Assembly (NCBI RefSeq): GCF_031755915.1
Contig: NC_083386.1
Location: forward strand, 3,193,001-3,257,000
DNA length: 64,000 nucleotides
Direction: 5' to 3'
Source of the DNA: Ziziphus jujuba
Taxonomy: Eukaryota; Streptophyta; Magnoliopsida; Rosales; Rhamnaceae
The first letter of the stretch is position 1, and each line of letters begins with the position of its first letter. Shown piece after piece: positions 6,595 through 28,250 of the stretch. Both the position numbers and the translations under genes were made by a program. A model generated the notes under the pieces. The model searched no databases. It saw only the letters and a list, made by a program, of their open reading frames with translations, and had not been told where the DNA came from.

Positions 6595-9500
6595 TTAGGG
6601 ATATGTATTGAACCCATAAATCATTGGAACCATTTCATGCTTCCCAGACTCCAAAAATGTACCAAAACCGTCACCTGGGTCCGTATTGGCTTCTATTGCT
6701 TGTATGAGTAAAACAGGCCTTGGTTCTTTAGATATGGCCAACCCCTCTTGACTATGACTTATTCCTTGTATGAAGACAGCAAGATTGTCCTTGAACTTCT
6801 TGGCTTGGGCCCTAGTGATCGGTCCCACCTTCATTTGTATTGGGTCAGCACCCCAGCGGGTTGTTGGTCGAACAGTCTCGGGTGGATTCACATCATTCCC
6901 CTCCTCTTGAAAAGGATTTGTCCTCAAATCGAAGTCATCACCTGCAGCAAAAGGAGATAAATCAGCAACATTAAAGGTGGCACTAACACTATACTCACCC
7001 GGTAGATTAGGTTTGTAGGGATTGTCATTTATCCTCTCCAAAACTTGAAAAGGTCCATCACCCCTCGGCATGAGTTTTGATTTCCTTTGTTCGGCAAATC
7101 TTTCTTTCCTTAAATGCAGCCACACCCAATCTCCAGGTTCAAACACCATTGATTTTCGGCCTTGATTAGCCACCTTTGCATATTGCTCGGTCCTCCTCTC
7201 AATGTTTGCTCGTGTCTTCTCATGAATCTGCTTTACAAAATCAAATTTTTGTTTTCCATCTAGATTAGCACACTCACTTAAATGCAAAGGTGTTAAATCT
7301 AATGGAGTCAAAGGATTAAAACCATAAACAATTTCAAATGGAGTAAATTTAGTTGCTGAATGTAAAGACCTATTATATGCAAATTCAACATGTGGCAAAC
7401 ATTCTTCCCAAGTCCTTAAATTTCTACTAATTAATGCTCTCAACAATGCAGACAATGTTCTATTTACTACTTCAGTTTGTCCATCAGTTTGTGGACGACA
7501 AGTAGTTGAAAATAAAAGCTTAGTACCTAATTTAGCCCACAATGTTTTCCAAAAATAGCTTAAGAACTTAGCATCCCTATCCGATACAATAGTTCTTGGC
7601 ATTCCATGCAATCTCACAATTTCCTTGAAAAATAAATTAGCAATATTGGATGCATCATCAGTTTTGTTACATGCAATAAAATGTGCCATCTTATAAAACC
7701 TATCTACTACAACAAATATTGAATCCTTACCTGTCCTTGACCTAGGCAACCCAAGAATAAAATCCATAGACAAATCTACCCAAGGATAGGTAGGGATCGG
7801 CAAAGGCATATACAATCCATGCAGTTTCAATGTTGATTTTGTTTTTCGGCACTTCAAACATCTTTCACAAATTCTCTCAACATCTCTCCTCATGTTAGGC
7901 TAATAAAAATGTTCTTGCAGCAAGGATAAAGTTTTTAAAACACCAAAATGGCCCATTAAACCACCCCCATGTCCTTCTCGAACCAATAATTCCCTAATAC
8001 TACAATTAGGCACACAAAGTTTGTTTTCCTTAAACAAATATCCCTCAAATATGTAAAATTTATTAAATCCATGTTTCAAACAGGTTTTAAAAATTTCTCC
8101 AAAGTCACTATCATGCTCATAAAGTTCTTTCAATTGTTCAAATCCAAGCAATCTAGCATCTAAGGTAGAAAAGAGCAAATACCTTCGGGATAATGCATCG
8201 GCAACCACATTTTCCTTACCTTTTTTGTAGCGGATCACATATGGAAATGTTTCAATAAATTCAATCCACTTAGCATGCCTTCGGTTGAGCTTTCCTTGAC
8301 CCTTGATATGCTTCAAAGGCTCATGATCCGTATGAATCACAAACTCCTTTGGCATGAGATAATGCTGCCACGTCTCCAAAGCCCTTACCAAAGCATACAT
8401 CTCCTTGTCATAAGTCGGGTAGTTTAGGGCAGCTCCATTCAGTTTTTCACTAAAGTAGGCTATGGGCCTTCCTTCTAACATTAAAATAGCTCCAATACCT
8501 ACACCAGAAGCATCACACTCAATTTCAAAAGTCTTAGAAAAATTTGGCAAAACTAACAAAGGTGCATTACACAATTTTTCTTTCAATAAATTAAAAGATT
8601 TTTCTTGTACTTCCCCCCATTTGAAACCAACATTCTTCTGGACAACTTCATTCAAGGGTGCTACTATGGTACTAAAATCCTTGACAAATCTTCGGTAAAA
8701 GCTTGCCAAGCCATGAAAGCTCCTCACTTGGGTGATAGAAGTAGGAACCGGCCACTCTTGAATTGCTTTCACCTTAGCTTGGTCAACTTTAATTCCTGCA
8801 GCACTTACTACAAAACCTAGAAACACAAGCTCTTCCTTGCAAAATTCACATTTTTTAATGTTAGCAAACAATCTTTCCTTTCTAAGAACTTGCAAAACTT
8901 GCCTAAGTTGATCCACAAGGTCATCCAAATTTTGGCTATATATTAGAATGTCACCAAAATAAACAACCACCAATTTACCAATAAATGGACGCATTACATG
9001 ATTCATAAGCCTCATGAAAGTACTAGGTGCATTGGATAATCCAAAAGGCATAACTAACCATTCATACAGCCCATATTTAGTTTTGAATGCGGTTTTCCAT
9101 TCATCATCTTCTTTCATCCTAATTTGGTGATAACCACTCCTAAGATCAATTTTTGTAAACATGCAAGCACCATGCAACTCATCAAGCATATCATCTAATC
9201 TATGAATGGGATGTCTATATTTGATGGTAATGTTGTTTATAGCCCTACAATCAACACACATTCTCCAAGAACCATCCCTTTTAGGTACCAACAAAAGAGG
9301 AACAGCACATGGACTTAAACTCTCACGAATGTATCATTTATCAAGCAAATCACTTACCTGTTTTTGCAGCTCCTTTGTTTCTTCGGGATTGCTCCTATAA
9401 GCTGGTCTATTTGGTATGGCAGCCCCTGGAACAAAGTCAATTTGATGTTCTATCCCTCGAATAGGTGGTAGTCCGCTTGGAATCTCATTTGGGAAGACAT

Positions 9501-9609
9501 CTCCAAATTCCTTCAAAAGAGAAATCATTGAACTTGGCAATTCAAGTTCTTCAAAGTTAGTTTGATCATTAAAATAATTTTCTTTGTAAAGCATGACCAG
9601 CAAAGGTTT
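6595..9609 (-). pseudogene. gypsy pol (RT-RNase H-integrase), two nonsense codons and a mutated RT centre
   Basis: One reading frame runs from 9603 to 6595 with stops at 9334-9336 and 7897-7899. In order: protease-RT linker; reverse transcriptase ([27 protein letters not shown]); RNase H ([36 protein letters not shown]); integrase zinc finger (HGGGLMGH...CERCLKC); DDE core ([34 protein letters not shown]); and a C-terminal tail ending YGFNTYP. The RT metal-binding box reads YFGDIL where copy 3 has YFDDIL, so a catalytic aspartate is lost (8953-8955). It would act in cytoplasmic reverse transcription and nuclear integration, but this copy is dead. Confidence 0.9.
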
Positions 9610-9952
9610 TGATACGAACCTAGGACGACCTGCTCCTAAACCCGTATTGTATTAGCCCGAATCTTTAATTAAGTTCAAGTTCTAATGGAATGGACCTCAA
9701 CCCCTAACCATCCTGTAGTTAGAAACCTTGGTATAATGTAGACGCCACAATAGGGGATGGAAAACCTATTGATAAGTCAAGCTAAAACAACCAATTCTCT
9801 AATGGTGTTTTAGGTGTTCTCAAAGAACAAAGAGACAATTAATCTCACAAGTATTTTCTTAATCAAATCAAAGTTGTATTATTATTGAAAAATAAGCCTT
9901 TAAATAGGCTTGAAAGAAACAAAATAAACCCTAAAAAATAATTCAAAACCGG
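9610..9952 (-). repeat. Partial gypsy LTR (3' 343 bp), left half of an interrupted LTR
   Basis: Starts at the family's LTR terminus (TGATACGAACCTAGG) and matches 5746-6089, then stops at AAAACCGG where TRIM sequence begins. The complementary 5' part of an LTR lies at 23674-24034. Confidence 0.75.
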
Positions 9953-10389
9953 GTTTGGCTCTGATACCATTTCTAGCCCAGGCTCAACCCGCATCAAGAT
10001 ATTGTCCTCTTTGGCCCAGTCCGTCGGGCCTCAAGGTTTTATACTCAAAACGCGTCTTGAAGGGAAAGGGAGCCCCACGCTTATAAGGCGTGCTTAACTC
10101 TCCTTTCCAATCGATGTGGGATATTGGGATATTACGCACCCATCCTTCCCCCTCCTGGGGCCCAGAGTCCGACCTGGCACACCGATCCGGGTTTGGCTCT
10201 GATACCATTTCTAGCCCAGGCTCAACCCGCATCAAGATATTGTCCTCTTTGGCCCAGTCCGTCGGGCCTCAAGGTTTTATACTCAAAACGCGTCTTGAAG
10301 GGAAAGGGAGCCCCACGCTTATAAGGCGTGCTTAACTCTCCTTTCCAATCGATGTGGGATATTGGGATATTACGCACCCATCCTTCCCC
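9953..10389 (-). mobile_element. TRIM doublet (two direct ~200-bp repeats)
   Basis: A ~201-bp segment starting GGGTTTGGCTCTGATACC occurs at 9951 and again at 10189 (offset 238 bp), with near-perfect identity by eye. Each repeat contains an iMet primer-binding-site complement, an LTR-like body starting near TCTAGCCCAGGC, and the start of the internal region (CCCATCCTTCCCC). The unit order is partial internal, LTR, internal, LTR, partial internal, as expected of a tandem TRIM. It is a different TRIM subfamily from 43729-44081 and 47786-48177. Confidence 0.65.
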
Positions 10390-10513
10390 AGGGGAGAAGA
10401 AGTAGAGTATACAACAAGAAGAACAAGAAGGACAAAGATAAGAACAGAGTAGAATAAGATTAAGCGGAAGGAAATGAAAATGACAAAAGATAAAGGCGGC
10501 AAAGCCAGCCAAG
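10390..10513 (-). promoter_or_regulatory. Pararetrovirus copy B: detached end of the intergenic region up to the primer-binding site
   Basis: Reverse complement of 15560-15676, i.e. the intergenic stretch just upstream of the primer-binding site. It ends (on minus) at CTTCTTCTCCCCT, exactly before the GTTGGTATCAG of the viral primer-binding site. It supplies the piece missing from copy B at 16448, so copy B was split here by copy A. Confidence 0.75.
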
Positions 10514-10539
10514 AACAATGAAATATAAAATATAAATAA

Positions 10540-13500
10540 TTAAATGAAAATATTGATTTAATTAATGAAACTAGGAAAGTCATTGAACAAAATAATTACA
10601 CCAATCAAAGTCTTATTACAATAGGTAAACAGTTAGACAAAATAGAAACTAAAATTGATAATTCCTCTAAAGAAGAAATTAGACCTCAACCACTCATAAA
10701 ATTTCCAGATATTACAAAAGTTCCAACTCTTCCAACTAAAACTAATCAACTGAGTCAACTCTTACAAGAATTACAATTAAAAACTTCCAAACATGAAGCC
10801 TCTTCTTCAAATCTAGCTACCATCAACAATAAATCTTCTTCTGATACAGAATCAAATCAATCTTCCTTGGATAATCATATTAATAGACTTAAAAATCAAA
10901 AACCAAGATTTAATACTTTTAAACAATGGAATACTAAACCATTACCCCCCGAATTTCAAGAATCCACCTCTAAACCTCAATTCTCTGTTAGTTCTGATAA
11001 ATTATACGAATGGAATATAGATGGTTTAAAAGAACAAGAAATCCTAACCAAATTACACCACATGTCCATGGTTGCTAATAGTTATTTTACTAATCAAAAC
11101 CTTCCCCAACCTGACATTGTTGAATTACTAGACACAGGTTTTACCGGTACTCTACACTACTGGTGGGAAAAACATTTAACAGATCAATCTAAATCAGAAA
11201 TCATTCATGCAGTTAAATTAGATGAAGAAGGATTCCCCATATTTGATGAGTCAATAGGTCAAGGTGTCCCAGATGGCGTCAATACCTTGTTAGCTACAAT
11301 AATTAGATATTTTATAGGAACCCCTACTGTTGTCACAGAACGAATTCATAGTCAATTAACCAATTTACACTGTCCCACTCTTAGTGATTTCGAATGGTAT
11401 GTCCAAACATTTACCACTGGAATCATGATGAGAGATGATAGTAATCAACCTTTTTGGAAAGAAAAATTTATTAATGGTTTACCCCAATTATTTGCTAGAA
11501 AAATCAGAAATGTCTTAAGTAATGATAGTGGTCACATAGATTACGATTCATTAACTTATGGCGACATAGTCTCAATCATCAAAAAAGAAGGATTAAAAAT
11601 GTGCACTGATATGAAAATAGCTAATCAACTAAATAATGATAAAAAGAAAACTAAATACGAATTAGGAAACTTTTGTCAACAATATGGTCTGTCTACTATA
11701 GCACCCTCTAGAAAAAACAAAATCAAAGACAAATCCTATACGAAACCTTTTAGAAAATCTTATTACAAATCCCATAAGTTTATTAAACCCAATCCTGATA
11801 AATTCTATAAATCAAATAAACATAAAAACGATTCAAAAGATAAAACAAAAATTAAATGCTTTAAATGTAATAAATTTGGTCATTTTGCTAATAATTGCAA
11901 AGTTAAACAAACAATCAAACAATTAGAAATACTTGAAGATCAAAAACAAAATTTAATCAATGTCTTAGGCATCCACAACACAGATAGTGAACATAGTGAA
12001 AACAATATTTACACTGAATCAAGTTCTGACGAATCAAGTAGTCACCCTAAATCCACCAGTGACACAGATAACCCTAAAATTACCCTAGGATGTTTAGATG
12101 CTTGTTGTCTAGATACCTGTTGTAATCAATCACTTAGTGTCTTAACTACTTCTACAGAAGATGAAGATATCATTTTAGAATTACTTAGTAAATTAGAAAA
12201 TCCTGATGAACGAATAGAATACATGAAAAAATATAAAAAGATAATCACTGATAATCACAAAGAAACAAATCAACATCATAAAAGTACTCAAAAAATATGT
12301 TTAACAGAAGCCTTGCAAACATTTAATAAATCCAAAAATAAACCCATAACTGTTCAAGACTTACAAACAGAAATTAAAACAATCAAGTCTGAAATTAAAG
12401 AATTACAAATGGAAAATCATTTAATCAAACATCGATTACAATTCATTCAGGATAACCCCCATCCTAGTCAACTTGATGAACAGGAAGAAGGATCTTCCCA
12501 TCATAATTGTATAGCTTCAATCCAAAAAATCAAACTTAGAAAATGGCATATTAAAATCACCATACTCATAAAAGATTTTCAATTAACAACAATTGCACTT
12601 TTAGATTTAGGTGCAGATTTAAATTGTATTCATGAAAGTCTTATCCCTCATCAATATTATACCAAAACAAAAGAAAAACTAAATTCAGCCAATGGTAGTA
12701 AAATGGATTTACAATATGAAATTAATCAAGTCCAAATTTGTCATAATCAAATCTGTTATACAACCTCTTTTGTCCTTATTAAAAATATGACAGATCAAGT
12801 AATCTTAGGAATCCCTTTCCTTTCTTTATTGTACCCATTTATCACAAACAATGATGGAATCATCAGTCACCCTTTAGGTGAAAAAATCAAATTTGATTTC
12901 TTGCTTCAATCAAATAATGTCCAGACCTTTCAAGATCAATCCATTTCTAAACAGCTTAATTGCATCCACATCAATCATCCTCCTTTTTATTCCTCTTATC
13001 TTCCATTTTTCAATCAATCATACTTCTATATATCTCAAATCATTAAAACCTCATTTTGCAAAATATATTTATATCTCTTTGCATCTCTTTCAACTCTTTG
13101 CATTATTTCAAAATATCTTTTCTCTAATCATTACAGTATGTCTCGCCCCAGCGGCTACATGATCATCAACAGTACATCTGTTCCAATTTGGAGTGGAGAA
13201 AATTCTGAAAAGAATTTCCCAACCCAATTTGAACTAGATATTCCCCAAAGAGCCTTAATCAATTCCGTTTGGAATAAAACCCATTTTGAATCACCAGAAG
13301 AAAAAATAGATTTTATTCAAACCCTTGATAACCTTTGTTTTTATCTCCAATCAATCAAACAAAAGCCCGATAGTAACTACTATTCCCATTATATCTTATT
13401 CACAGGCCGAAACCCTGGCCTTTATAAAACATGGTCCCAAATAGCCCATGAGATAGCAGGCCAAATCAATACCCAATACCGAGGCTATTACAGTCTCCAT

Positions 13501-15081
13501 CAAGCCCTTGAAATCACCCATCGAGAAATAGGTCCACAAGCCTTTATTCACCCTTGGGTCCGAATGGATCCAGAGTTTTCCAAAACTCTCAGATCTGTCC
13601 AAAAAATCATCTCTAATCAAGCTTCTAGTTCCCAATCAGCCCATAAAATGCAACATAATCATCCTTGCCCAATCACTGGTTTTGTCAACCCACAACATCC
13701 CAATACTCAACTTATTCAAACCCAAGATCCACTTGATATCCTCAATATAGAACATCCTTTAGAATTCCGAGTTCATGAACTCAAACACAAAAATCAATGC
13801 CTTGAACACCAAATTCAAACCTTACTCCACAACAATGCCATTCACCAACTTCACATTAATCATCTCCAAACCGATCTCGATTATTGGACCAAAAAACAAT
13901 CTTTTAATCAAAACCAAGCCTCCACCAGCCATTCTAACCAACCTTTCCAACTCATTGACAATCCTTATCCTTTAATCAAAAATTCCACCTTACCTTGGAA
14001 TCCTGTCCGTATATTTTTTTATCCTAATCAATGGTTACACCAAGCTGGTTTACCCAGTGATCTTATTTCCCGCATTTGGAACATTAAAAGAAAACAATTT
14101 TATGATGAATTCAATTCTCTTCAAAAAATGCTCCGCTCATTTATCCAATCACCCAATACCTGCCCCCGTGGTATGTATGTATATTCGGAAGCTGCTTTGC
14201 ATCCTTCCAATATCAAATGTACCACATGTGACCCTGAAAATATACCCCTCAATCATGTTGGCTGTCCTCACCAAATCAGTTATTGTATTTACCGTGTTGG
14301 CCTATATGCCCCAACCTTTCACAATTTCATTTTTCAAAATAAAACAATCACTTGGGCTACCCTCTTTGACTGGGGATTAGTTGGAACCATTATATTCACC
14401 CATACAGATCAAGCCCAAAACTGTACTGAATTAATCAAAATGGCCATTACCTGCCTCTTTTTACCTCACCATTCAGCACCATTAAAACAACAAGGATATA
14501 TTGCTGTTCACATCACATCCACTCCACCAGAATGGATCCATGGATGGGAACCAGCACGCCACCTAATCACTTTTGAAAAATCAAAATATGCTACTAATCA
14601 TTTCCGCCAAGACGAACAGGTACGACGATGTTCCAGCCCAATCACAAGACAACTACGCCACTGGAGAGCTGCAGTATATGGAGACAACTTTAATCTCCAA
14701 CACATTACTCAAAAATATTTTTTAGCAAAAGAAAATCAATACACGAAAATATATTTACATCATGCATTCCGCTATTCACATCCTTTCATTACAAAACCAT
14801 GTATCCAGATCTTGCTGCTATTTATTATAAAATGTTCAAAAATCAGAGAATCATTAATACAGACAATAATCAAGAATCAGAAGAAGACATTGACATTGAT
14901 TCAGACAACGACGACACTTACCAGTTTGGTGAAGAAGAAGATCACAACATCACCAACATGCTGGAAGCCTAAATCACAATCAACAGGAGGAATCTTTGAC
15001 AGTACAAAGTTACTTTCAAAATTCCACCCACAAAAGCAGATCACGAGACTTTACTGTTCAATCACTATTCATGAACAGTAA
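10540..15081 (+). pseudogene. Endogenous caulimovirid copy A: coat/zinc knuckle-protease-viroplasmin polyprotein (5'-truncated, RT-less)
   Basis: The frame is open from 10540 to the TGA at 15079-15081 (about 1,513 codons) with no ATG at its start, because it begins inside the coat-protein region at a rearrangement. In order: coat-protein segment with a basic K-rich tail; CCHC zinc knuckle CFKCNKFGHFANNC (11857-11898); acidic segment; coiled-coil-like region; aspartic protease with DLGAD (12604-12618) where copy B has DSGAD; hydrophobic linker; then MSRPSGYM at 13138 opening the last domain. GRNPGLYKTW (about 13408) matches the Caulimovirus viroplasmin/RNase-H-like fold of the translational transactivator. 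Reverse transcriptase and RNase H, which normally follow the protease, are absent. There are no internal stops, but the protease active-site change and 5' truncation make it nonfunctional. Confidence 0.85.
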
Positions 15082-15681
15082 AAGGAGCCGAAAGCAGATC
15101 ACTGTTCAATCAACTGTTCCCGACAGCGCACTGTTCAATCAACTATTCATCAACAGGAATCGAGTCCTCCTTTGCCTATTTAAAGGAGCCCCATTCCTCT
15201 TCCAAAATCAAGTTTTTTAAAGCTTTTCAAGTTTCTTAATTCATTTTTCAAGTTTTTCCTTTTGGAGTTTTTCCCGTCTGAAGCTAAGAGTGAGTTTAGA
15301 GAGTTTCTGGCAGATTTCTCCTCTTTTCTCAATCTTCTTCTATCCCAAAAAACTCTGTAATCAATTTATTTATTCTGAGTGTTGAGTGTTGAGTGTTGAG
15401 TGCTTGTAACACTTTGGTTCTTCGTAATCAAGTAAGCATTCATACATTTCATTTTCATTTATATATTGCTTGGCTGGTTATACCGCCTTTAATATTATTT
15501 TCATTTAATCATTCATTTATTTATTTTGTTTAATCATTTATTTATTTTATTTATACTTGGCTGGCTTTGCCGCCTTTATCTTTTGTCATTTTCATTTCCT
15601 TCCGCTTAATCTTATTCTACTCTGTTCTTATCTTTGTTCTTCTTGTTCTTCTTGTTGTATACTCTACTTCTTCTCCCCTGT
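15082..15681 (+). promoter_or_regulatory. Pararetrovirus copy A intergenic region (pregenomic promoter and leader start)
   Basis: Lies between the polyprotein stop and the primer-binding site, as in circular caulimovirid genomes. There is a TATA-like CCTATTTAAAGG near 15175, about 35 bp upstream of where a pregenomic RNA could start. Further features are short direct repeats (CTGTTCAATCA around 15100-15150), GAGTGTT heptamers at 15378-15404, and an AT-rich stretch of ATTTATTT repeats at 15500-15550. No expression evidence can be read from the DNA. Confidence 0.65.
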
Positions 15682-15694
15682 TGGTATCAGAGCC
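15682..15694 (+). other. Pararetrovirus copy A primer-binding site, tRNA-iMet
   Basis: TGGTATCAGAGCC, complementary to the plant initiator-Met tRNA 3' end. It sits between the intergenic region and the movement-protein leader. Copy B has the same site at 23241-23253 (minus). Confidence 0.85.
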
Positions 15695-15976
15695 ATAAGT
15701 GTTCCGATCTATATGCTTACTACTTCTTTTAGCACCCGTAGAGTATTGTATCTGTTTAATTCATTCATTTCCTTGTCTTAATTTCTAAAGGTTTATTAAG
15801 CCAACTTTATTGTTGTCATTCGTGTTCGTCCCTAGCTGAACAGTAAATGGTCCGTGTCTGAACAATAAGTCCCAGGTGAGGCATGAGAGGAGCGGTCTGA
15901 GAGGTCAAGGGAAGAGAGCAATCATATGACAATAGTAAATTTGAATTAATAGAGTTTTAAAAATTAAAATTCGAAA

Positions 15977-16345
15977 ATGGATAGATTATTCAGAACTAAT
16001 TCTTCTACTAGTTCTAGATTAAGTACCAGCTCTAGGTCATCGCTTAATGGAAATCAAATACCAGATATAATTAATGAAGAACATTATAGTTTCACCTCTA
16101 ATGAATCAATCAACCCAGACTGGAATATTCCTCCAGTTTCCCTTAGTGAAATTTACCACCATAAAACTTGGTCTTTGTCCTCCTTTAAAAGTGAATCACA
16201 TATTAAAACTGTTGAACAAGTTTATACAATCAATAAAGAACATGAAACATGCCAGCTAATCACTAAATCAAACATCAATCAACATTTAAAAGATGGTTAT
16301 AAATTCATGCATTTATTGTTGTCATTCGTGTTCGTCCCTAGCTGA
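15977..16345 (+). pseudogene. Pararetrovirus copy A movement-protein start, cut after ~113 codons
   Basis: ATG at 15977 starts MDRLFRTNSSTSSRLSTSSR and follows the copy B movement protein to KFMH (about 16317). There the sequence switches to a second copy of the leader, which adds about nine foreign residues and a stop. The Ser/Thr-rich N-terminus and the beginning of the 30K-type core are all that remain. Leader 15695-15976 has no long ORF. Confidence 0.8.
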
Positions 16346-16447
16346 ACAGTAAATGGAAGAGAGCAATCATATGACAATAGTAAATTTGAATTAATAGAGT
16401 TTTAAAAATTAAAATTCGAAAATGGATAGATTATTCAGAACTAATTC
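16318..16447 (+). repeat. Second, internally deleted copy of the viral leader
   Basis: Direct repeat of about 15808-15993, including the movement-protein ATG (here 16422-16424), but lacking the 61 bases matching 15851-15911. It ends at 16447, where minus-strand copy B begins. It probably formed during viral recombination or repair-mediated integration. Confidence 0.75.
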
Positions 16448-16886
16448 AAAATAAATAAATGAATGATTAAATGAAAATAATATTGAAGGCGGTATAACAA
16501 GCCAAACAATATATAAATGAAAATGAAATGTATGAATGCTTACTTGATTACGAAGAACCAAAGTGTTACAAGCACTCAACACTCAACACTCAGAATAAAT
16601 AAATTGATTACAGAGTTTTTTGGGATAGAAGAAGATTGAGAAAAGTGGAGAAATCTGCCAGAAACTCTCTAAACTCACTCTTAGCTTCAGTCGGGAAAAA
16701 CTCCAAAAGGAAAAACTTGAAAAATGAATTAAAAAACTTGAAAAGCTTTAAAAAACTTGATTTTGGAAGAGGAATGGGGCTCCTTTAAATAGGCAAAGGA
16801 GGACTCGATTCCTGTTGATGAATAGTTGATTGAACAGTGCGCTGTCGGGAATAGTTGATTGAACAGTGAACTGCTTTCGGCTCCTT
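16448..16886 (-). promoter_or_regulatory. Pararetrovirus copy B intergenic region, larger part
   Basis: Reverse complement of about 15085-15536, including the TATA-like box (about 16785) and the heptamer repeats (one unit fewer than in copy A). It stops at the ATTTATTT run; the remainder continues at 10513-10390 on the same strand. Confidence 0.75.
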
Positions 16887-19800
16887 TTACTGTTCATGAA
16901 TAGTGATTGAACAGTAAAGTCTCGTGATCTGCTTTTGTGGGTGGAATTTTGAAAGTAACTTTGTACTGTCAAAGATTCCTCCTGTTGATTGTGATTTAGG
17001 CTTCCAGCATGTTGGTGATGTTGTGATCTTCTTCTTCACCAAACTGGTAAGTGTCGTCGTTGTCTGAATCAATGTCAATGTCTTCTTCTGATTCTTGATT
17101 ATTGTCTGTATTAATGATTCTCTGATTTTTGAACATTTTATAATAAATAGCAGCAAGATCTGGATACATGGTTTTGTAATGAAAGGATGTGAATAGCGGA
17201 ATGCATGATGTAAATATATTTTCGTGTATTGATTTTCTTTTGCTAAAAAATATTTTTGAGTAATGTGTTGGAGATTAAAGTTGTCTCCATATACTGCAGC
17301 TCTCCAGTGGCGTAGTTGTCTTGTGATTGGGCTGGAACATCGTCGTACCTGTTCGTCTTGGCGGAAATGATTAGTAGCATATTTTGATTTTTCAAAAGTG
17401 ATTAGGTGGCGTGCTGGTTCCCATCCATGGATCCATTCTGGTGGAGTGGATGTGATGTGAACAGCAATATATCCTTGTTGTTTTAATGGTGCTGAATGGT
17501 GAGGTAAAAAGAGGCAGGTAATGGCCATTTTGATTAATTCAGTACAGTTTTGGGCTTGATCTGTATGGGTGAATATAATGGTTCCAACTAATCCCCAGTC
17601 AAAGAGGGTAGCCCAAGTGATTGTTTTATTTTGAAAAATGAAATTGTGAAAGGTTGGGGCATATAGGCCAACACGGTAAATACAATAACTGATTTGGTGA
17701 GGACAGCCAACATGATTGAGGGGTATATTTTCAGGGTCACATGTGGTACATTTGATATTGGAAGGATGCAAAGCAACTTCCGAATATACATACATACCAC
17801 GGGGGCAGGTATTGGGTGATTGGATAAATGAGCGGAGCATTTTTTGAAGAGAATTGAATTCATCATAAAATTGTTTTCTTTTAATGTTCCAAATGCGGGA
17901 AATAAGATCACTGGGTAAACTAGCTTGGTGTAACCATTGATTAGGATAAAAAAATATACGGACAGGATTCCAAGGTAAGGTGGAATTTTTGATTAAAGGA
18001 TAAGGATTGTCAATGAGTTAGAAAGGTTGGTTAGAATGGCTGGTGGAGGCTTGGTTTTGATTAAAAGATTGTTTTTTGGTCCAATAATCGAGATCGGTTT
18101 GGAGATGATTAATGTGAAGTTGGTGAATGGCATTGTTGTGGAGTAAGGTTTGAATTTGGTGTTCAAGGCATTGATTTTTGTGTTTGAGTTCATGAACTCG
18201 GAATTCTAAAGGATGTTCTATATTGAGGATATCAAGTGGATCTTGGGTTTGAATAAGTTGAGTATTGGGATGTTGTGGGTTGATAAAACCAGTGATTGGG
18301 CAAGGATGATTATGTTGCATTTTCTGGGCTGATTGGGAACTAGAAGCTTGATTAGAGATGATTTTTTGGACAAATCTGAGAGTTTTGGAAAACTCTGGAT
18401 CCATTCGGACCCAAGGGTGAATAAAGGCTTGTGGACCTATTTCTCGATGGGTGATTTCAAGGGCTTGATGGAGACTGTAATAGCCTCGGTATTGGGTATT
18501 GATTTGGCCTGCTATCTCATGGGCTATTTGGGACCATGTTTTATAAAGGCCAGGGTTTCGGCCTGTGAATAAGATATAATGGGAATAGTAGTTACTATCG
18601 GGCTTTTGTTTGATTGATTGGAGATAAAAACAAAGGTTATCAAGGGTTTGAATAAAATCTATTTTTTCTTCGGGTGATTCAAAATGGGTTTTATTCCAAA
18701 CGGAATTGATTAAGGCTCTTTGGGGAATATCTAGTTCAAATTGGGTTGGGAAATTCTTTTCAGAATTTTCTCCACTCCAAATTGGAACAGATGTGCTGTT
18801 GATGATCATGTAGCCGCTGGGGCGAGACATACTGTAATGATTAGAGAAAAGATATTTTGAAATAATGCGAAGAGTTGAAAGAGATGCAAAGAGATATAAA
18901 TATATTTTGCAAAATGAGGTTTTAATGATTTGAGATATATAGAAGTATGATTGATTGAAAATTGGAAGATAAGAGGAATAAAAAGGAGGATGATTGATGT
19001 GGATGCAATTAAGCTGTTTTGAAATGGATTGATCTTGAAAGGTCTGGACATTATTTGATTGAAGCAAGAAATCAAATTTGATTTTTTCACCTAAAGGGTG
19101 ACTGATGATTCCATCATTGTTTGTGATAAATGGGTACAATAAAGAAAGGAAAGGGATTCCTAAGATTACTTGATCTGTCATATTTTTAATAAGGACAAAA
19201 GAGGTTGTATAACAGATTTGATTATGACAAATTTGGACTTGATTAATTTCATATTGTAAATCCATTTTACTACCATTGGCTGAATTTAGTTTTTCTTTTG
19301 TTTTGGTATAATATTGATGAGGGATAAAACTTTCATGAATACAATTTAAATCTGCACCTGAATCTAAAAGTGCAATTGTTGTTAATTGAAAATCTTTTAT
19401 GAGTATGGTGATTTTAATATGCCATTTTCTAAGTTTGATTTTTTGGATTGAAGCTATACAATTATGATGGGAAGATCCTTCTTCCTGTTCATCAGGTTGA
19501 CTAGGATGGGGGTTATCCTAAATGAATTGTAATCGATGTTTGATTAAATGATTTTCCATTTGTAATTCTTTAATTTCAGACTTGATTGTTTTAATTTCTG
19601 TTTGTAAGTCTTGAACAGTTATGGGTTTATTTTTGGATTTATTAAATGTTTGCAAGGCTTCTGTTAAACATATTTTTTGAGTACTTTTATGATGTTGATT
19701 TGTTTCTTTGTGATTATCAGTGATTATCTTTTTATATTTTTTCATGTATTCTATTCTTTCATCAAGATTTTCTAATTTACTAAGTAATTCTAAAATGATA

Positions 19801-22800
19801 TCTTCATCTTCTGTAGAAGTAGTTAAGACACTAAGTGATTGATTACAACAGGTATCTAGACAACAAGCATCTAAACATCCTAAAGTAATTTTAGGGTTAT
19901 CTGTGTCACTGGTGGATTTAGGGTGACTACTTGATTCGTCAGAACTTGATTCAGTGTAAATATTGTTTTCACTATGTTCACTATCTGTGTTGTGGATGCC
20001 TAAGACATTGATTAAATTTTGTTTTTGATCTTCAGGTATTTCTAATTGTTTGATTGTTTGTTTAACTTTGCAATTATTAGCAAAATGACCAAATTTATTA
20101 CATTTAAAGCATTTAATTTTTGTTTTATCTTTTGAATCGTTTTTATGTTTATTTGATTTATAGAATTTATCAGGATTGGGTTTAATAAACTTATGGGATT
20201 TGTAATAAGATTTTCTAAAAGGTTTCGTATAGGATTTTTCTTTGATTTTGTTTTTTCTAGAGGGTGCTATAGTAGACAGACCATATTGTTGACAAAAGTT
20301 TCCTAATTCGTATTTAGTTTTCTTTTTATCATTATTTAGTTGATTAGCTATTTTCATATCAGTGCACATTTTTAATCCTTCTTTTTTGATGATTGAGACT
20401 ATGTCGCCACAAGTTAATGAATTGTAATCTATGTGACCACTATCATTACTTAAGACATTTCTGATTTTTCTAGCAAATAATTGGGGTAAACCATTAATAA
20501 ATTTTTCTTTCCAAAAAGGTTGATTACTATCATCTCTCATCATGATTCCAGTGGTAAATGTTTGGACATACCATTCGAAATCATTAAGAGTGGGACAGTG
20601 TAAATTGGTTAATTGACTATGAATTCGTTCTGTGACAGCAGTAGGGGTTCCTATAAAATGTCTAATTATTGTAGCTAACAAGGTATTGACGCCATCTGGG
20701 ACACCTTGACCTATTGACTCATCAAATATGGGGAATCCTTCTTCATCTAATTTAACTGCATGAATGATTTCTGATTTAGATTGATCTGTTAAATGTTTTT
20801 CCCACCAGTAGTGTAGAGTACCGGTAAAACCTGTGACTAGCAATTCAACAATGTCAGGTTGGGGAAGGTTTTGATTAGTAAAATAACTATTAGCAACCAT
20901 GGACATGTGGTGTAATTTGTTTAGGATTTCTTGTTCTTTTAAACCATCTATATTCCATTCATATAATTTATCAGAACTAACAGAGAATTGAGGTTTAGAG
21001 GTGGATTCTTGAAATTCGGGGGGTAATGGTTTAGTATTCCATTGTTTAAAAGTATTAAATCTTGGTTTTTGATTTTTAAGTCTATTAATATGATTATCCA
21101 AGGAAGATTGATTTGATTCTGTATCAGAAGAAGATTTATTGTTGATGGTAGCTAGATTTGAAGAAGAGGCTTCATGTTTGGAAGTTTTTAATTGTGATTC
21201 TTGTAAGAGTTGACTCAGTTGATTAGTTTTAGTTGGAAGAGTTGGAACTTTTGTAATATCTGGAAATTTTATGAGTGGTTGAGGTCTAATTTCTTCTTTA
21301 GAGGAATTATCAATTTTAGTTTCTATTTTGTCTAACTGTTTACCTATTGTAATAAGACTTTGATTGGTGTAATTATTTTGTTCAATGACTTTCCTAGTTT
21401 CATTAATTAAATCGTTATTTTCATTTGTGGAAGTTTTAAAGGGTGAAGCTATGACTTGGTTATTTAAATGGGGAATGATTATTTTCTCAACTGGAGGGTG
21501 ACTAGATAGGACTGTGGATTTATCGGATTTAATCCATTTTTCTTTTGTTAAAGTTTTTAAATTATTTAAAGGATAATAAAATTTTTCAAGAAAATCAAAA
21601 AATTTAATATCAAATTTAAGTTGTAACATTGTTTGTTTCCAAGTTTGCCAAATATCTTCTTTTTGATCTCTAGTGTGTGATTGTCTATATTTGATTAGTT
21701 TGTCGTGATTTTTATCAGACATCACTTTTTGATTTAATTGTTTCCAGTGTGGTTTAAAGGGTGTAGCTAAGGTGTTTAATTGGGGATCTATAAAATCTGA
21801 AGCTGTGGGTGACTGTGTGGATTGGATTTCTTCATCACTGTAACGAGGTTGACTCACTTGTCCAGTGTGGTGAATTGATTTTAATCTAAGATTTTTAAGT
21901 TCATTTTCTAATCTTAGTTTGTGTAGTTGTTGTTCTAATTCTTGAATTTTAATTCTTTGTAAATCTTTTTCTATTTCATGATCTCTTCGAGATATACTAT
22001 CAGAAGAGACTGACTCGATGATTGGTTGATTAAGGGATCTTCGGGAGGAGGTTTCTCCTAAGGGTTGATTAGATCTAGGATTTCTATCAAAGGAGATTCG
22101 AACTGATCCATCATCAGATTGTGAGATGAACTCAGTGTTGGTTAATATATTTTGAATAGGTGTTGGACTTCGGACATCAATTAATACCCAATCAGAAGGT
22201 AAATTAACATCTGACCATTTGATTAATTTAGGAATTTGAATATTTAAATCTTGATATTGGCTCTGGATTAACATAGTATGACCTTTAGCATTATGTTGTT
22301 TAGCTTTAAAGTTCATATTAGTTCCTGAGACTTTATATTGAATTCTGTAAATTAAGGCTAAGGGTTGACAACCTTCATCGAAGTGATAACCCGAAGTTTT
22401 TAAATTAAGAGTTAAGACCTTTAATATGCATGGGTCTGTTAAACTGACTGGAAAATTGGGATAACAGTCAAAATGAACAGGGCCATTACATAAACTGGTT
22501 TCTATAACTCCAAAAACACTTTCATTAAAGTTTTTAAAGCTTGCATCTCTAAGACACAGTAGTATAGATGAATTGGTTCCTAATTTGGTTAGGGGTTTGA
22601 TTCCGATTTGGACTAATCCTATATGCATGAATTTATAACCATCTTTTAAATGTTGATTGATGTTTGATTTAGTGATTAACTGGCATGTTTCATGATCTTT
22701 ATTGATTGTATAAACTTGTTCAACAGTTTTAATATGTGATTCACTTTTAAAGGAGGACAAAGACCAAGTTTTATGGTGGTAAATTTCACTAGGGGAAACT

Positions 22801-22958
22801 GGAGGAATATTCCAGTCTGGGTTGATTGATTCATTAGAGGTGAAACTATAATGTTCTTTATTAATTATATCTGGTATTTGATTTCCATGAAGCGAGGACC
22901 TAGAGCTGGTACTTAATCTAGAACTAGTAGAAGAATTAGTTCTGAATAATCTATCAAT
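16887..22958 (-). pseudogene. Endogenous caulimovirid copy B: full MP-CP-protease-viroplasmin polyprotein, RT-less, two stops
   Basis: A single frame of 2,024 codons runs from the position of the copy A start codon (here ATT at 22956-22958) to 16887. Approximate order: Ser-rich N-terminus; movement protein of the 30K superfamily, aa 60-270; coiled coil EIEKDLQRIKIQELEQQL near aa 330; coat protein, aa 400-930; zinc knuckle CFKCNKFGHFANNC near aa 950; aspartic protease DSGAD near aa 1199; hydrophobic linker; and viroplasmin-like domain with GRNPGLYKTW near aa 1470, then a Cys-rich C-terminal part. Stops at 19518-19520 (TAG) and 18018-18020 (TAA) replace Gln codons of copy A. No YxDD polymerase box or RNase H is present anywhere. 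Caulimovirid genomes normally encode both between protease and transactivator. Confidence 0.88.
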
Positions 22959-23268
22959 TTTCAAATTTTAATTTTTAAAACTCTATTAATTCAAATTTAC
23001 TATTGTCATATGATTGCTCTCTTCCCTTGACCTCTCAGACCGCTCCTCTCATGCCTCACCTGGGACTTATTGTTCAGACACGGACCCTTTACTGTTCAGC
23101 TAGGGATGAACACGAATGACAACAATAAAGTTGGCTTAATAAACCTTTAGAAATTAAGACAAGAAAATGAATGAATTAAACAGATATAATACTCTACGGG
23201 TGCTAAAAGAAGTAACAAGCATATAGATCGGAACACTTATGGCTCTGATACCAACAGGGGAGAAGAAG
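22959..23268 (-). other. Pararetrovirus copy B leader and primer-binding site; 5' terminus of the unit
   Basis: Leader matching 15669-15976, with the iMet primer-binding site at 23241-23253. Viral sequence continues 15 bases past it (CAACAGGGGAGAAGAAG on plus) and stops at 23268. The last 13 viral bases are repeated at the other end of copy B (10390 side), so copy B is one genome unit opened at the primer-binding site. Confidence 0.8.
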
Positions 23269-23673
23269 ACGTAATTTGTTCAGAGGGGTGGCTTGACACG
23301 ACTGTTGATTTATCTGGTGGTTCTCCTGTTTCTTTTGGTAATATGTTTATGTTTAGTAAAGGATAATAATCTTTGAGAAAATTAAAAAACAATATATTAG
23401 TTTTAAGATCTATCATTGTTTCTTTCCAACTAGATAAAATATGGGCTTTTTGTTCTTTAGTGTATGATCGTTGGTAATTTAATAATTGATCTTTATGTTT
23501 TTCTAATTTAAATTCGTGATTTAGATGTTTGTAGTTTGGTCTCCATTGATTAGTATTGATTTGTTGGCAGATTTTATCTTGATGTTTTAATTTTGGTATA
23601 GATCTGAATTTTTTATTACTAGATGAACCTAAAGATATATTAGAATTATTATTAATAGATTTACTAAAGACAG
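23269..23673 (-). pseudogene. Fragment of a second, diverged caulimovirid coat-protein region
   Basis: The minus-strand translation is open for ~130 codons without a start. It includes WRPNYKHLNHEFKLEK, QKAHILSSWKETMIDLK and DKSTVVSSHP. These align with copy B's coat-protein segment (KPHWKQLNQK, KEDIWQTWKQTMLQLK, DKSTVLSSHP) at clearly lower identity than A has to B. It is therefore a different virus lineage or an older integrant, joined directly to the end of copy B. Confidence 0.75.
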
Positions 23674-24034
23674 AATAAAGGAATTAATTAATTTACAATG
23701 AAAATAATAAAATAATAACTTTTCTAAACTTATTTGTACAGAAAATAAATAAATAAAAACTAAAAAGTAATGGTAGTTTACTAAAACAAAAAGTAGAATA
23801 AAATTAGGAAACTATAATACTAGCTTTTTTGACTAATTTGACTTTGACCAATCTTTGACCTCTTTGAGCTCCAAATCAACTTCTAGATGCTTTTTAGGAT
23901 GCCAAATAAGCTGAATATGAAGTCCCACACGTTGCCCATCCTTGGAAAAATAAGAAAAGGCTAATACAGTAAAATACAGTAAAGCCAGCAAGCAATATAG
24001 CAAATTCGACCAAATTGTTGATGCTGTCCGTACA
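23674..24034 (-). repeat. Partial gypsy LTR (5' part), right half of an interrupted LTR
   Basis: Matches the start of the LTR (GTCCGTACA at 24034 on plus) back to the GAATTAATTAATTTAC region, equivalent to about 6183-6544. Together with 9610-9952 it makes up nearly a whole LTR. The junction lies in a palindromic AATTAATT stretch, so the exact base is uncertain. Confidence 0.7.
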
Positions 24035-24084: not shown

Positions 24085-27000
24085 TTAGGCATATGTATTG
24101 AACCCATAAATCATTGGAACCATTTCACGCTTCCCGGACTCCAAAAATGTACCAAAACCGTCACCCAGGTCCGTATCGGCTTCTATTGCTTGTATGAGTA
24201 AAACAGGCCTTGGTTCTTTAGATATGGCCAACCCCTCTTGACTATGACTTATTCCTTGTATGAAGACAGCAAGATTGTCCTTGAACTTCTTGGCTTGGGC
24301 CCTAGTGATCGGTCCCACCTTCATTTGTATTGGGTCAGCACCCCAGCGGGTTGTCGGTCGAACAGTCTCGAGTGGATTCGCATCATTCCCCTCCTCTTGA
24401 AAAGGATTTGTCCTCAAATCGAAGTCATCACCTACAGAAAAAGGAGATAAATCAGCAACACTAAAGGTGGCACTAACATTATACTCACCCGGTAGATCAA
24501 GTTTGTAGGCATTGTCGTTTATCCTCTCCAAAACTTGAAAAGGTCCATCACCCCTCGGCATGAGTTTTGATTTCCTTTGTTCGGCAAATCTTTCTTTCCT
24601 TATATGCAGCCACACCCAATCTCCAAGTTCAAACACCATTGATTTTCGGCCTTGATTAGCCACCCTTGCATATTGCTCGGTCCTCCTTTCAATGTTTGCG
24701 CGGGTCTTTTCATGAATCTGCTTTACAAAATCAGCTTTTTGTTTTCCATCTAGATTAGCACGCTCACTTAAAGGCAAAGGTATTAAATCTAATGGAGTCA
24801 AAGGATTAAAACCATAAACAATTTCAAATGGAGTAAATTTAGTTGCTGAATGTAAAGACCTATTATATGCAAATTCAACGTGTGGCAAACATTCTTCCCA
24901 AGTCCTTAAATTTCTACTAATTAATGCTCTCAACAATGCAGACAAGGTTCTATTTACTACTTCGGTTTGTCCATCAGTTTGTGGATGACAAGTAGTTGAA
25001 AATAAAAGCTTAGTACCTAATTTAGCCCACAATGTTTTCCAAAAATAGCTTAAGAACTTAGCATCCCTATCCGACACAATAGTTCTTGGCATTCCATGCA
25101 ATCTCACAATTTCCTTGAAAAATAAATTAGCAATATTGGATGCATCATCAGTTTTGTTACATGCAATAAAATGTGCCATCTTAGAAAACCTATCTACTAC
25201 AATAAATATTGAATCCTTACCTGTCCTTGACCTAGGCAACCCAAGAATAAAATCCATAGACAAATCTACCCAAGGATAGGTAGGGATCGGCAAAGGCTTA
25301 TACAATCCATGCGGTTTCAATGGTTATTTTGTTTTTCGGCACTTCAAACATCTTTCACAAATTCTCTCAACATCTCTTCTCATGTTAGGCCAATAAAAAT
25401 GTTTTTGCAGCAAGGATAAAGTTTTTAAAACACCAAAATGGCCCATTAAACCACCCCCATGTCCTTCCCGAACCAATAATTCCCTAATACTACAATTAGG
25501 CACACAAAGTTTGTTTTCCTTAAACAAATATCCCTCAAATATGTAAAATTTATTAAATCCATGTTTCAAACAGGTTCTAAAAATTTCTCCAAAGTCACTA
25601 TCATGCTCATAAAGTTCTTTCAATTGTTCAAATCCAAGCAATCTAGCATCTAAGGTAGAAAAGAGCACATACCTTCGGGATCACATTTTCCTTACCTTTT
25701 TTGTAACGGATCACATATGGAAATGTTTCAATAAATTCAATCCACTTAGCATGCCTTCGGTTGAGATTTCCTTGACCCTTGATATGCTTCAAAGACTCAT
25801 GATCCGTATGAATCACAAACTCCTTTGGCATGAGATAATGCTGCCACGTCTCCAAAGCCCTCACCAAAGCATACATCTCCTTGTCATAAGTCGGATAGTC
25901 TAAGGCAGCTCCACTTAATTTTTCACTAAAGTAGGCTATGGGTCTTCCTTCTTGCATTAAGACAGCTCCAATACCTACACCCGAAGCATCACACTGAATT
26001 TCAAAAGTCTTAGAAAAATTTGGCAAAACTAACAAAGGTGCATTACACAATTTTTCTTTCAACAAATTAAAAGATTTTTCTTGTACTTCCCCCCATTTGA
26101 AACCAACATTCTTCTTGACAACTTCATTCAATGGTGCTGCTATGGTACTAAAATCCTTGACAAATCTTATGTAAAAGCTTGCCAAGCCATGAAAGCTCCT
26201 CACTTGGGTGATAGAAGTAGGAACCGGCCACTCTTGAATTGCTTTCACCTTAGCTTGGTCAACTTTGATTCCTGCAGCACTTATTACAAAACCTAGAAAC
26301 ACAAGCTCTTCTTTGCAAAATTCACATTTTTTAATGTTAGCAAACAATCTTTCCTTTCTAAGAACTTGCAAAACTTGCCTAAGTTGATCCACATGGTCAT
26401 CCAAATTTCGGCTATATATTAGAATGTCATCAAAATAGACAACCACAAATTTTTTCCAATAAATGGACGCATTACATGATTCATAAGCCTCATGAAGGTA
26501 CTAGGTGCATTGGATAATCCAAAAGGCATAACTAACCATTCATACAGCCCATATTTAGTTTTGAATGCGGTTTTCCGTTCATCACCTTCTTTCATCCTAA
26601 TTTGGTGATAACCACTCCTAAGATCAATTTTTGTAAACATGCAAGCACCATGCAACTCATCAAGCATATCATCTAATCTAGGAATGGGATGTCTATATTT
26701 GATGGTAATATTATTTATAGCCCTACAATCAACACACATTCTCCAAGAACCATCCTTTTTAGATACCAACAAAACAGGAACAGCACATGGGCTTAAACTC
26801 TCACGAATGTATCCTTTATCAAGCAAATCACTTACCTGTTTTTGCAGCTCCTTTGTTTCTTCGGGATTGCTCCTATAAGCTGGTCTATTTGGTATGGCAG
26901 CCCCTGGAACAAAGTCAATTTGATGTTCTATCCCTCGAATAGGTGGTACTCCACTTGGAATCTCATTTGGGAAGACATCTCCAAATTCCTTCAAAGGAGA

Positions 27001-27579
27001 AATCATTGAACTTGGCAATTCAAGTTCTTCAAAGTTAGTTTGATCATTAAAATAATTTTCTTTGTAAAGCATGACCAGCAAAGGTTTCTTACACTCAATA
27101 ACCTTATTAATATCCCCTAAACTCAAATAAAAATTGCTACTTAACCTTTCTTTTCTTTCTTTTTTATTTTCCCCCTTGGATTGGCGCAAACCTTCGGATT
27201 TCCCTTCCTTCTCCAAGCACTCGGGTTTGCCACTTTCTTTCCCCTCTCTTTCAGCTTTCCCTTGATCTTTCCACTCAATATTAGCCTTAGAAACCTTACC
27301 TTGATCAGCAACCTCATTCTTACCTTCTTGAAAGGATGGTGAAGTCGTTGGTGCCATACTTGCTTTTTCCTTGAGGTTTTCGGCTTCTCTCCTTTGTTGC
27401 ATTTGTACTTGGTCTTTGTAAACCTCTTTAGGAGATAATGGTTCCAGCTTGACCTTCTTCCCTTTGAATCTGATAACAATACTATTTTCTCGACCAAAAT
27501 GAGTAGCATCTTTATCAAATTGCCATGGCCTACCTAATAGTATATGTCCAGCAATCATGGGTAACAAATTAATTATCAA
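24085..27579 (-). pseudogene. gypsy element 3: protease/RT/RNase H/integrase, frameshifted
   Basis: Same family as 6595-9609. It starts inside the protease region ([13 protein letters not shown] near 27550), runs through a K/E-rich linker, then RT with the intact YFDDIL box (about 26420), RNase H, integrase zinc finger and DDE core, ending YGFNTYA at 24085. Breaks: a frameshift near 26445 just before YFDDIL; a ~14-bp deletion near 25680 in the RNase H end; and a stop at 25321-25323 in place of a Ser codon. The 5' part (gag, primer site, LTR) is missing; sequence beyond 27580 belongs to a CACTA remnant. Confidence 0.9.
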
Positions 27580-28250
27580 ATAAATTAAATATTATCTCAT
27601 TGATATATTTTTACATAATTTGTAAACTATTGTATTTTTTCATAACAAAATTAATATTAATTAAACTTCTATGAATGTACACTCATTGAGATGGAAGTTG
27701 ACTTCCTCTTTTTGACGATATTACACCCTCATACTGCATATAGATAAATTAAAAAGTTATTAACACTTATGCAAAATAAATAAAATATTAATCATTATTA
27801 AATTTGTAATTTAGTAAATGAAAATTTAAAAAATATTACCATCGTTTTTAATATTTGGCGAGACACATTTCTCCTAACTAAAAGTGGAAAACGTATAATG
27901 AAGCAAATAAAAAAATTAATTAAATGAATAATAATAAATGTTATAAATATGACTTAAAACATAAGTTAATAAATATATGTACCAATTTATTTAGAAGATA
28001 TTGTTTATCCATATCCCCTTATAGTCATTACAAACATAGTCACTCTCACATTCATCCTCATTATGATTTTCATCGATACGTGGCAACTATATGACAAATG
28101 GATGTGAGCCATCATAGTATCTCCAAAAACATCTTCTTCAACAAAAGTACGATGTTGTGGTAAAGTAGTTAAAACAACAGACCATCTCTAATCAAGTTGA
28201 TCTTTATCATAAAATACTTGTTGAACTTAGCAAAACAATGTCAAGCAATA
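27580..28250 (-). pseudogene. Decayed CACTA transposon remnant
   Basis: Nucleotide similarity to 58755-59400 is clear (for example AATCAAGTTGATCTT and CATACTGCATATA segments in the same order). Minus-strand fragments recall the DUF4216 region at 59126-59506, but stops and indels prevent any ORF. Confidence 0.6.

What the first reader, a model, noticed from the sequence alone, without database searches (positions are those of the whole stretch)
10390..23268. Pararetrovirus family that encodes movement, coat, protease and viroplasmin proteins but no reverse transcriptase
Seen: in both copies the frame runs from the protease (ILGIPFLSLLYPF) through ~110 codons straight into MSRPSGYM and a viroplasmin-type domain (GRNPGLYKTW). 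No RT or RNase H motif occurs anywhere in the 7-kb unit. Known: caulimovirid genomes place RT-RNase H after the protease, and some endogenous florendoviruses have been proposed to be bipartite. Inference: this is either a helper-dependent deletion form that kept its frame, or one component of a divided genome whose RT is on another segment. Because A and B share the same lesion, it was not created by decay at this locus.
Basis: partly seen in the sequence, partly recalled or inferred. Interest (0 to 1): 0.88.

Follow-up and report, generated by a model that had tools for sequence, protein, structure and literature searches.

The report
Half of a two-part plant pararetrovirus
A plant chromosome carries two fossil copies of a virus segment that has the genes for movement, coat, protease and a viroplasmin-like domain but no reverse transcriptase; a matching segment with reverse transcriptase lies elsewhere in the same genome, as published for rice in 2014, and a piece of it sits right beside these copies.

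Summary
Both copies read coat domain, zinc knuckle, aspartic protease, about 100 codons, then a viroplasmin-type domain, with no RT in the viral cluster. Copy a lacks about 1.2 kb of MP; copy b has two in-frame stops. The arrangement is in print: Geering 2014 (PMC4241990, passages and 2 of 7 parts read) describes it as component B of a putative bipartite florendovirus. Of the 40 scored intergenic places in this genome I class 19 as B, 13 as A (no MP core, divergent protease); of 5 A places read far enough, 4 carry RT. The protease-viroplasmin junction recurs 9 times at 8 other loci; B domains show pN/pS 0.14-0.28, linker 0.58. Possibly new: B's extension carries an RNase H1 N-terminal/viroplasmin domain (7 of 7 stop-free copies scanned), modest in score, with no detectable counterpart in A's ORF2. 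Papers seen give ORF2 no known domain and florendoviruses no TAV homologue.

The parts
10389..10552 (-). leader fragment in inverse orientation; its outer end stops at the edge of the tRNA-Met primer site and abuts host DNA
   Evidence: 92.7% to 15522-15680; sequence
10542..16315 (+). copy a of component B, circularly permuted, MP core missing
11347..12447 (+). copy a: coat domain and CCHC zinc knuckle
   Evidence: PF22909, PF00098
12544..12903 (+). copy a: aspartic protease
   Evidence: PF00077 E 3.2e-8
12904..13137 (+). copy a: variable in-frame linker where RT-RNase H would be expected
   Evidence: pN/pS 0.58, alignments with gaps among copies
13138..13698 (+). copy a: viroplasmin-type region; RNase H1 N-terminal/Cauli_VI domain at 13399-13509
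   Evidence: PF01693; NF046109 N-terminal part E 9.1e-5, below that model's own cut-off; PDB 1qhk E 0.0072
13699..15081 (+). copy a: C-terminal extension and end of polyprotein
   Evidence: no Pfam family at E 5
15177..15184 (+). TATA-like box of the putative pregenomic promoter
   Evidence: motif only
15682..15694 (+). tRNA-Met primer binding site, copy a
   Evidence: TGGTATCAGAGCC
15977..16321 (+). copy a: MP amino-terminal fragment
   Evidence: tblastn 94% to MP aa 2-117
16312..16447 (+). further leader/MP-start fragment between the copies
16447..23268 (-). copy b of component B, with MP core; frame 22964-16889 has two in-frame stops
18459..18569 (-). copy b: RNase H1 N-terminal/Cauli_VI domain
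   Evidence: PF01693 E 8.7e-5; position by offset to copy a
21822..22964 (-). copy b: movement protein
   Evidence: PF01107 E 3.2e-19
23242..23253 (-). tRNA-Met primer binding site, copy b
23269..23674 (-). fragment of component A (the RT-bearing partner), fused to the start of copy b
   Evidence: 96-98% nt identity to A units such as L044, L045, L047, L056, L016; 47% aa to B's region after MP, E 1e-21

Best explanation
This is component B of an endogenous florendovirus of the Oryza sativa B virus type, captured in the chromosome together with a piece of component A. Shown: B carries MP, CP, protease and a viroplasmin-like extension in one frame and no RT; A shares the leader, primer site, the start of MP and the 3' end, lacks the MP core and CP, and carries a diverged protease, RT and RNase H and its own ORF2. 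Inferred: A supplied RT in trans, B supplied movement, coat and viroplasmin functions, and the shared leader let both RNAs be primed, reverse-transcribed and packaged by one set of proteins. The copies probably entered as DNA with an end at the primer-site discontinuity, and have since decayed.
For: Both unit types under one leader in one genome: of 40 scored places 19 B, 13 A, 2 A', 1 A/B chimera, 3 B without MP core, 2 unclassed (my reading). RT after the protease at 8 fetched places: 7 with A-type protease (two of them, L044 and L045, a duplicate pair) and 1 A' (Pfam RT and RNase H in L053, L054, L056). Leader identity to copy b: A 94.9% (11 alignments, 11 of 13 A loci used), B 95.4% (10 alignments from 9 of 19 B loci), while protease DNA is 81-84% A to B and 92-96% B to B: the leader is kept alike, the coding parts are not. 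Low pN/pS in B: MP 0.15, MID 0.15, CP 0.17, AP 0.18, viroplasmin region 0.28, C-terminal part 0.14. Component A fragment fused at 23268/23269. Compound A+B loci also at C5 14.26M and C10 12.82M. Published: PMC4241990.
Against: No test of particles or replication. A' units (C10 4.59M and its duplicate at 4.83M; C11 25.43M) hold CP sequence and one has RT, so the split is not clean. Many sites are rearranged, and 40 of 345 candidates were scored. For 8 of the 13 A places too little was fetched to see RT; one of the 5 read further (C10 12.82M) is cut off after the protease. The pN/pS comparisons all use a window copy as reference, include duplicate loci, handle gaps crudely, and for AP 5 of 13 alignments are A or A' units.
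Confidence: 0.82

Rival explanations
1. B is a helper-dependent deletion form (satellite-like) of a complete florendovirus that supplied all functions, not a genome part.
For: Geering 2014 says helper dependence cannot be discounted. A' units with CP sequence, one followed by RT, show that other forms circulated.
Against: No unit with both MP core and RT was seen in the stretches fetched. A itself lacks MP core and CP in the 13 A places, so A would need a helper too. B has its own conserved extension with no detectable counterpart in A's ORF2.
Confidence: 0.15
2. The RT was lost by a deletion at this locus and the two copies are a local inverted duplication.
For: Copies a and b differ by only 0.8% over 4.98 kb.
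Against: Same junction 9 times at 8 other fetched loci, with synonymous divergence of 0.12-0.20 in the B domains other than protease; different ends and permutation in a and b; a-b differences look neutral (24 N, 9 S, p 0.28).
Confidence: 0.02
3. The units spread as non-viral retroelements inside the genome.
For: Multicopy; the primer site is also typical of plant retroelements (recalled).
Against: No LTR repeat or integrase was seen inside the viral cluster; MP and coat domains; circular permutation. LTRs and integrase were not searched for in the other loci.
Confidence: 0.02

Closest known systems
Oryza sativa B virus component B (tentative Florendovirus), Geering 2014 PMC4241990
   Same: MP-CP-AP polyprotein, no RT, C-terminal extension, intergenic region nearly identical to an RT-bearing component A, compound A+B loci, B more frequent than A
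   Different: The paper calls the extension homologous to A's ORF2 (more divergent in rice); here no similarity was detected and a viroplasmin-type domain was found. No sequence comparison with the published consensus was possible.
Bipartite florendoviruses VvinBV, VvinDV (grape) and Sorghum bicolor virus (PMC4241990, PMC9719215; passages)
   Same: Same division into A and B as described there
   Different: Other hosts; not compared by sequence here
Transactivator/viroplasmin (TAV, P6) of caulimoviruses
   Same: PF01693, named Cauli_VI, matches here (that P6 itself carries it is recalled)
   Different: Here the domain is inside a polyprotein after the protease; no TAV function shown; PMC5902531 states no TAV homologue recognisable by BLASTP in Florendovirus
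Bipartite begomoviruses (recalled)
   Same: Two components sharing one nearly identical common region
   Different: Unrelated single-stranded DNA viruses; analogy only

Membership tests
OsatBV component B | MP, CP and protease in one polyprotein without RT | tested here: met
OsatBV component B | Partner component A with RT and near-identical intergenic region (>90%) in the same genome | tested here: met
   94.9% over 11 A alignments of the leader; RT
OsatBV component B | C-terminal extension homologous to A's ORF2 | tested here: inconclusive
   none found by BLASTP at E 10 or hhalign, probability 0.1 of 100; 7 and 2 close sequences, so little power
OsatBV component B | High identity to the published consensus | not testable with these tools
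Florendovirus | RT placed in the florendovirus clade | not tested
   no tree was made
Caulimoviridae | tRNA-Met primer site, MP PF01107, coat domain PF22909, retropepsin | tested here: met
TAV/viroplasmin | PF01693 domain | tested here: met
   7 of 7 stop-free copies matched; 5 of 5 scanned alone above the curated cut-off of 21 bits, at 21.4-23.8
TAV/viroplasmin | Inclusion-body formation and translation transactivation (recalled as TAV functions) | not testable with these tools
   needs bench work

The most novel reading that the evidence does not exclude
Component B is not a deletion form but owns a gene: a viroplasmin-like protein with an RNA:DNA hybrid-binding type of domain, fused behind the protease and absent from A, so that the two segments divided labour into polymerase (A) and movement, coat and virus-factory (B). 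This would be the first TAV-type domain in florendoviruses as far as my searches show.
Probability: 0.45. Interest if true: 0.55.

Novelty: already known. Interest (0 to 1): 0.4.

Why it matters
A bipartite genome is called unique among viral retroelements in PMC4241990, and PMC10377300 says no multipartite example is known in Ortervirales otherwise (passages read), so a locus with both parts fused is fossil evidence that they travelled together. A viroplasmin-type domain limited to B would say which functions were split and would give the unnamed extension a testable role.

Tried and rejected
Local decay as the cause of the missing RT: rejected. RT elsewhere in the window belonging to the virus: no, the RT frames at 9333-7903 and 27591-25646 (-) lie beside Ty3-type integrase frames. 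Homologues of the extension in the large protein collection: 1597 candidates, none at E 0.01. Viral contigs: extension and MP-CP region, none. Single-sequence AlphaFold2 of 13138-13947: pLDDT 46, not interpretable, no fold search made. A profile of 7 copies found no PDB chain at E 1 and the 266-aa piece found 1qhk only at 0.093, although the 56-aa domain alone found it at 0.0072: results that weaken the domain call. Leader folding: z -2.27 on 20 shuffles, weak. (TA)n repeats, frequent at published loci: no run of 6 or more units in the 10.4 kb left of the cluster or within 21 kb to its right. Literature: searches; the TAV statement on florendoviruses that I saw is that of PMC5902531; no paper whose passages I saw reports PF01693 in a florendovirus. 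Papers: PMC4241990 outline, passages and parts 2 and 5 of 7; PMC10377300, PMC13308828, PMC5902531, PMC4411674, PMC9719215, PMC10458927, PMC10641527 passages only; the rest listings only.

Full report
What is there. The cluster holds copy a (+, 10542-16315) and copy b (-, 23268-16447), 99.0% alike over 4987 columns and 97.7% over 649, plus an inverted leader fragment (10389-10552) and a small leader piece (16312-16447). Both copies read CP, zinc knuckle, protease, about 100 codons, then a viroplasmin-type domain and a long extension. The MP core is present only in copy b; copy a lacks about 1.2 kb of MP. Copy b has two in-frame stops.

No RT. A profile from 8 RT loci of the same genome finds the Ty3 elements on both sides and nothing in the cluster at E 10; tblastn with the same 8 finds nothing in 10389-23900 at E 1. 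The same profile does find RT in A units, so the absence is not a failure of the test.

The partner. The intergenic region (15420-16000) gave 47 rows; 40 of 345 candidates were scored. I dropped the 7 shortest, partial rows and classed the other 40 by eye from a map of protein pieces and the RT profile on 43 loci: 19 B (MP core follows); 13 A (no MP core, MID region at 32-52% and protease at 70-75% aa identity; the MP start, about 43 residues, is detected by tblastn in 9 of the 13); 2 A' (MID 61%, part of CP at 75%, protease about 83%); 1 with A-type start and B-type linker and viroplasmin (L028); 3 B-like units without MP core (L018, L035, L039) whose 5' spacer partly resembles A's; 2 unclear (L013, L036). 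Some loci look like duplicates of each other (C6 0.24-0.27M with C11 1.36-1.44M; two places on C10). Of the 13 A places I read 5 far enough downstream: 4 have RT (L015/L053, L024/L056, L033/L054, L048/L055), 1 is cut off after the protease (L047). In all, RT follows a protease of this family at 8 fetched places: L042, L044, L045, L048/L055, L053, L054, L056 with A-type protease and L052 with A'. Pfam confirms RT and RNase H in L053, L054 and L056 and the RNase H end in L055. After RNase H, A has an open frame of 441 residues, ORF2 (L054).

Not a local lesion. Protease-linker-viroplasmin stands together 9 times at 8 of the 13 ten-kilobase loci: L040, L041, L043 twice, L047, L048, L050, L051 and, with a broken linker, L052; no RT hit lies between. 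Against a window copy as reference, pN/pS is 0.15 for MP (12 alignments), 0.15 MID (7), 0.17 CP (6), 0.18 protease (13, of which 5 are A or A'), 0.58 linker (12), 0.28 viroplasmin region (12), 0.14 C-terminal part (8). Alignments are not independent and gaps were handled crudely. The linker is the least constrained, as expected of a spacer at an old junction. A to B homology runs through the protease and ends within the linker. Copies a and b differ by 24 nonsynonymous and 9 synonymous changes, not distinguishable from neutral (p 0.28); with recalled grass rates of 1.3e-8 and 6.5e-9 per site and year this gives 0.32 to 0.64 million years if they entered as equals. The 15667-16315 stretch is more diverged (15/649 against 41/4980, p 0.0013), so the copies may descend from different viral molecules there.

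The partner in the window. 23269-23674 matches component A loci at up to 98% (L044, L045; 97.1% over 408 bases in L047), A' at 84% and a B-like unit at 75%, and is fused to the first base of copy b. The outer ends of the B cluster, 10389 and 23268, lie within about 2 and 15 bases of the tRNA-Met primer site, which fits capture of viral DNA with an end at that discontinuity (inference).

How it works, and how sure. Shown: complementary gene sets under one leader that is about 95% alike in A and B while the protease differs by 16-19% in DNA. Inferred: A gave RT, B gave movement, coat and viroplasmin; template exchange kept the leader alike. Helper dependence stays open.

The extension. PF01693 is above its curated cut-off in copy a, copy b and the five other copies scanned alone, and matched 7 of 7; copies with stops in this region were not scanned. 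Scores are just above the cut-off (21.4-24.8 against 21 bits). The N-terminal part of an NCBIfam RNase H model also matches (E 9.1e-5, below that model's own cut-off), and the RNase HI domain chain 1qhk (E 0.0072 for the 56-aa piece; 0.093 for 266 aa); a profile of the 7 copies found no PDB chain at E 1. None of the six other copies aligned reads GRNPG as the window does, and they still match. A's ORF2 gave no PF01693, no BLASTP hit at E 10 and hhalign probability 0.1 of 100. Geering 2014 calls the rice extension a divergent ORF2 homologue and ORF2 free of known domains; PMC5902531 says no TAV homologue is recognisable in Florendovirus. So the domain call may be new, and the ORF2 homology could not be reproduced with these shallow profiles.

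Verdict. The main finding is real and already published; the compound locus, the recount in this genome and the viroplasmin-type domain are additions.

Noticed in passing
window 9949-10389: 203-base direct repeat in two identical copies, each containing a tRNA-Met primer-site complement; looks like a small LTR element directly against the viral end
   Followed up: partly
window 6595-9651 and 24085-27591 (-): Two Ty3-type elements sharing repeats of 95-99%, same orientation, on both sides of the viral cluster
   Followed up: partly
L052 (C10:4590390-4600389), L040/L057 (C11:25.43M): Units A' under the same leader without MP but with CP sequence (76% in L057); RT follows in L052, none was found in the 5 kb of L057. 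Possible intermediate between complete and divided forms
   Followed up: partly
L018, L035/L041, L039/L043: B-like units that lack the MP core and carry a partly A-like 5' spacer, suggesting exchange between A and B
   Followed up: partly
L028 (C9:3410101): Unit with A-type start and protease followed by B-type linker and viroplasmin region
   Followed up: no
L020-L025, L044, L045: Similar rearranged A/B clusters on both C6 (0.24-0.27M) and C11 (1.36-1.44M), apparently a duplicated chromosome stretch
   Followed up: no
window 13138 onward: Base composition rises from about 29% to 38% GC near the start of the viroplasmin region
   Followed up: no
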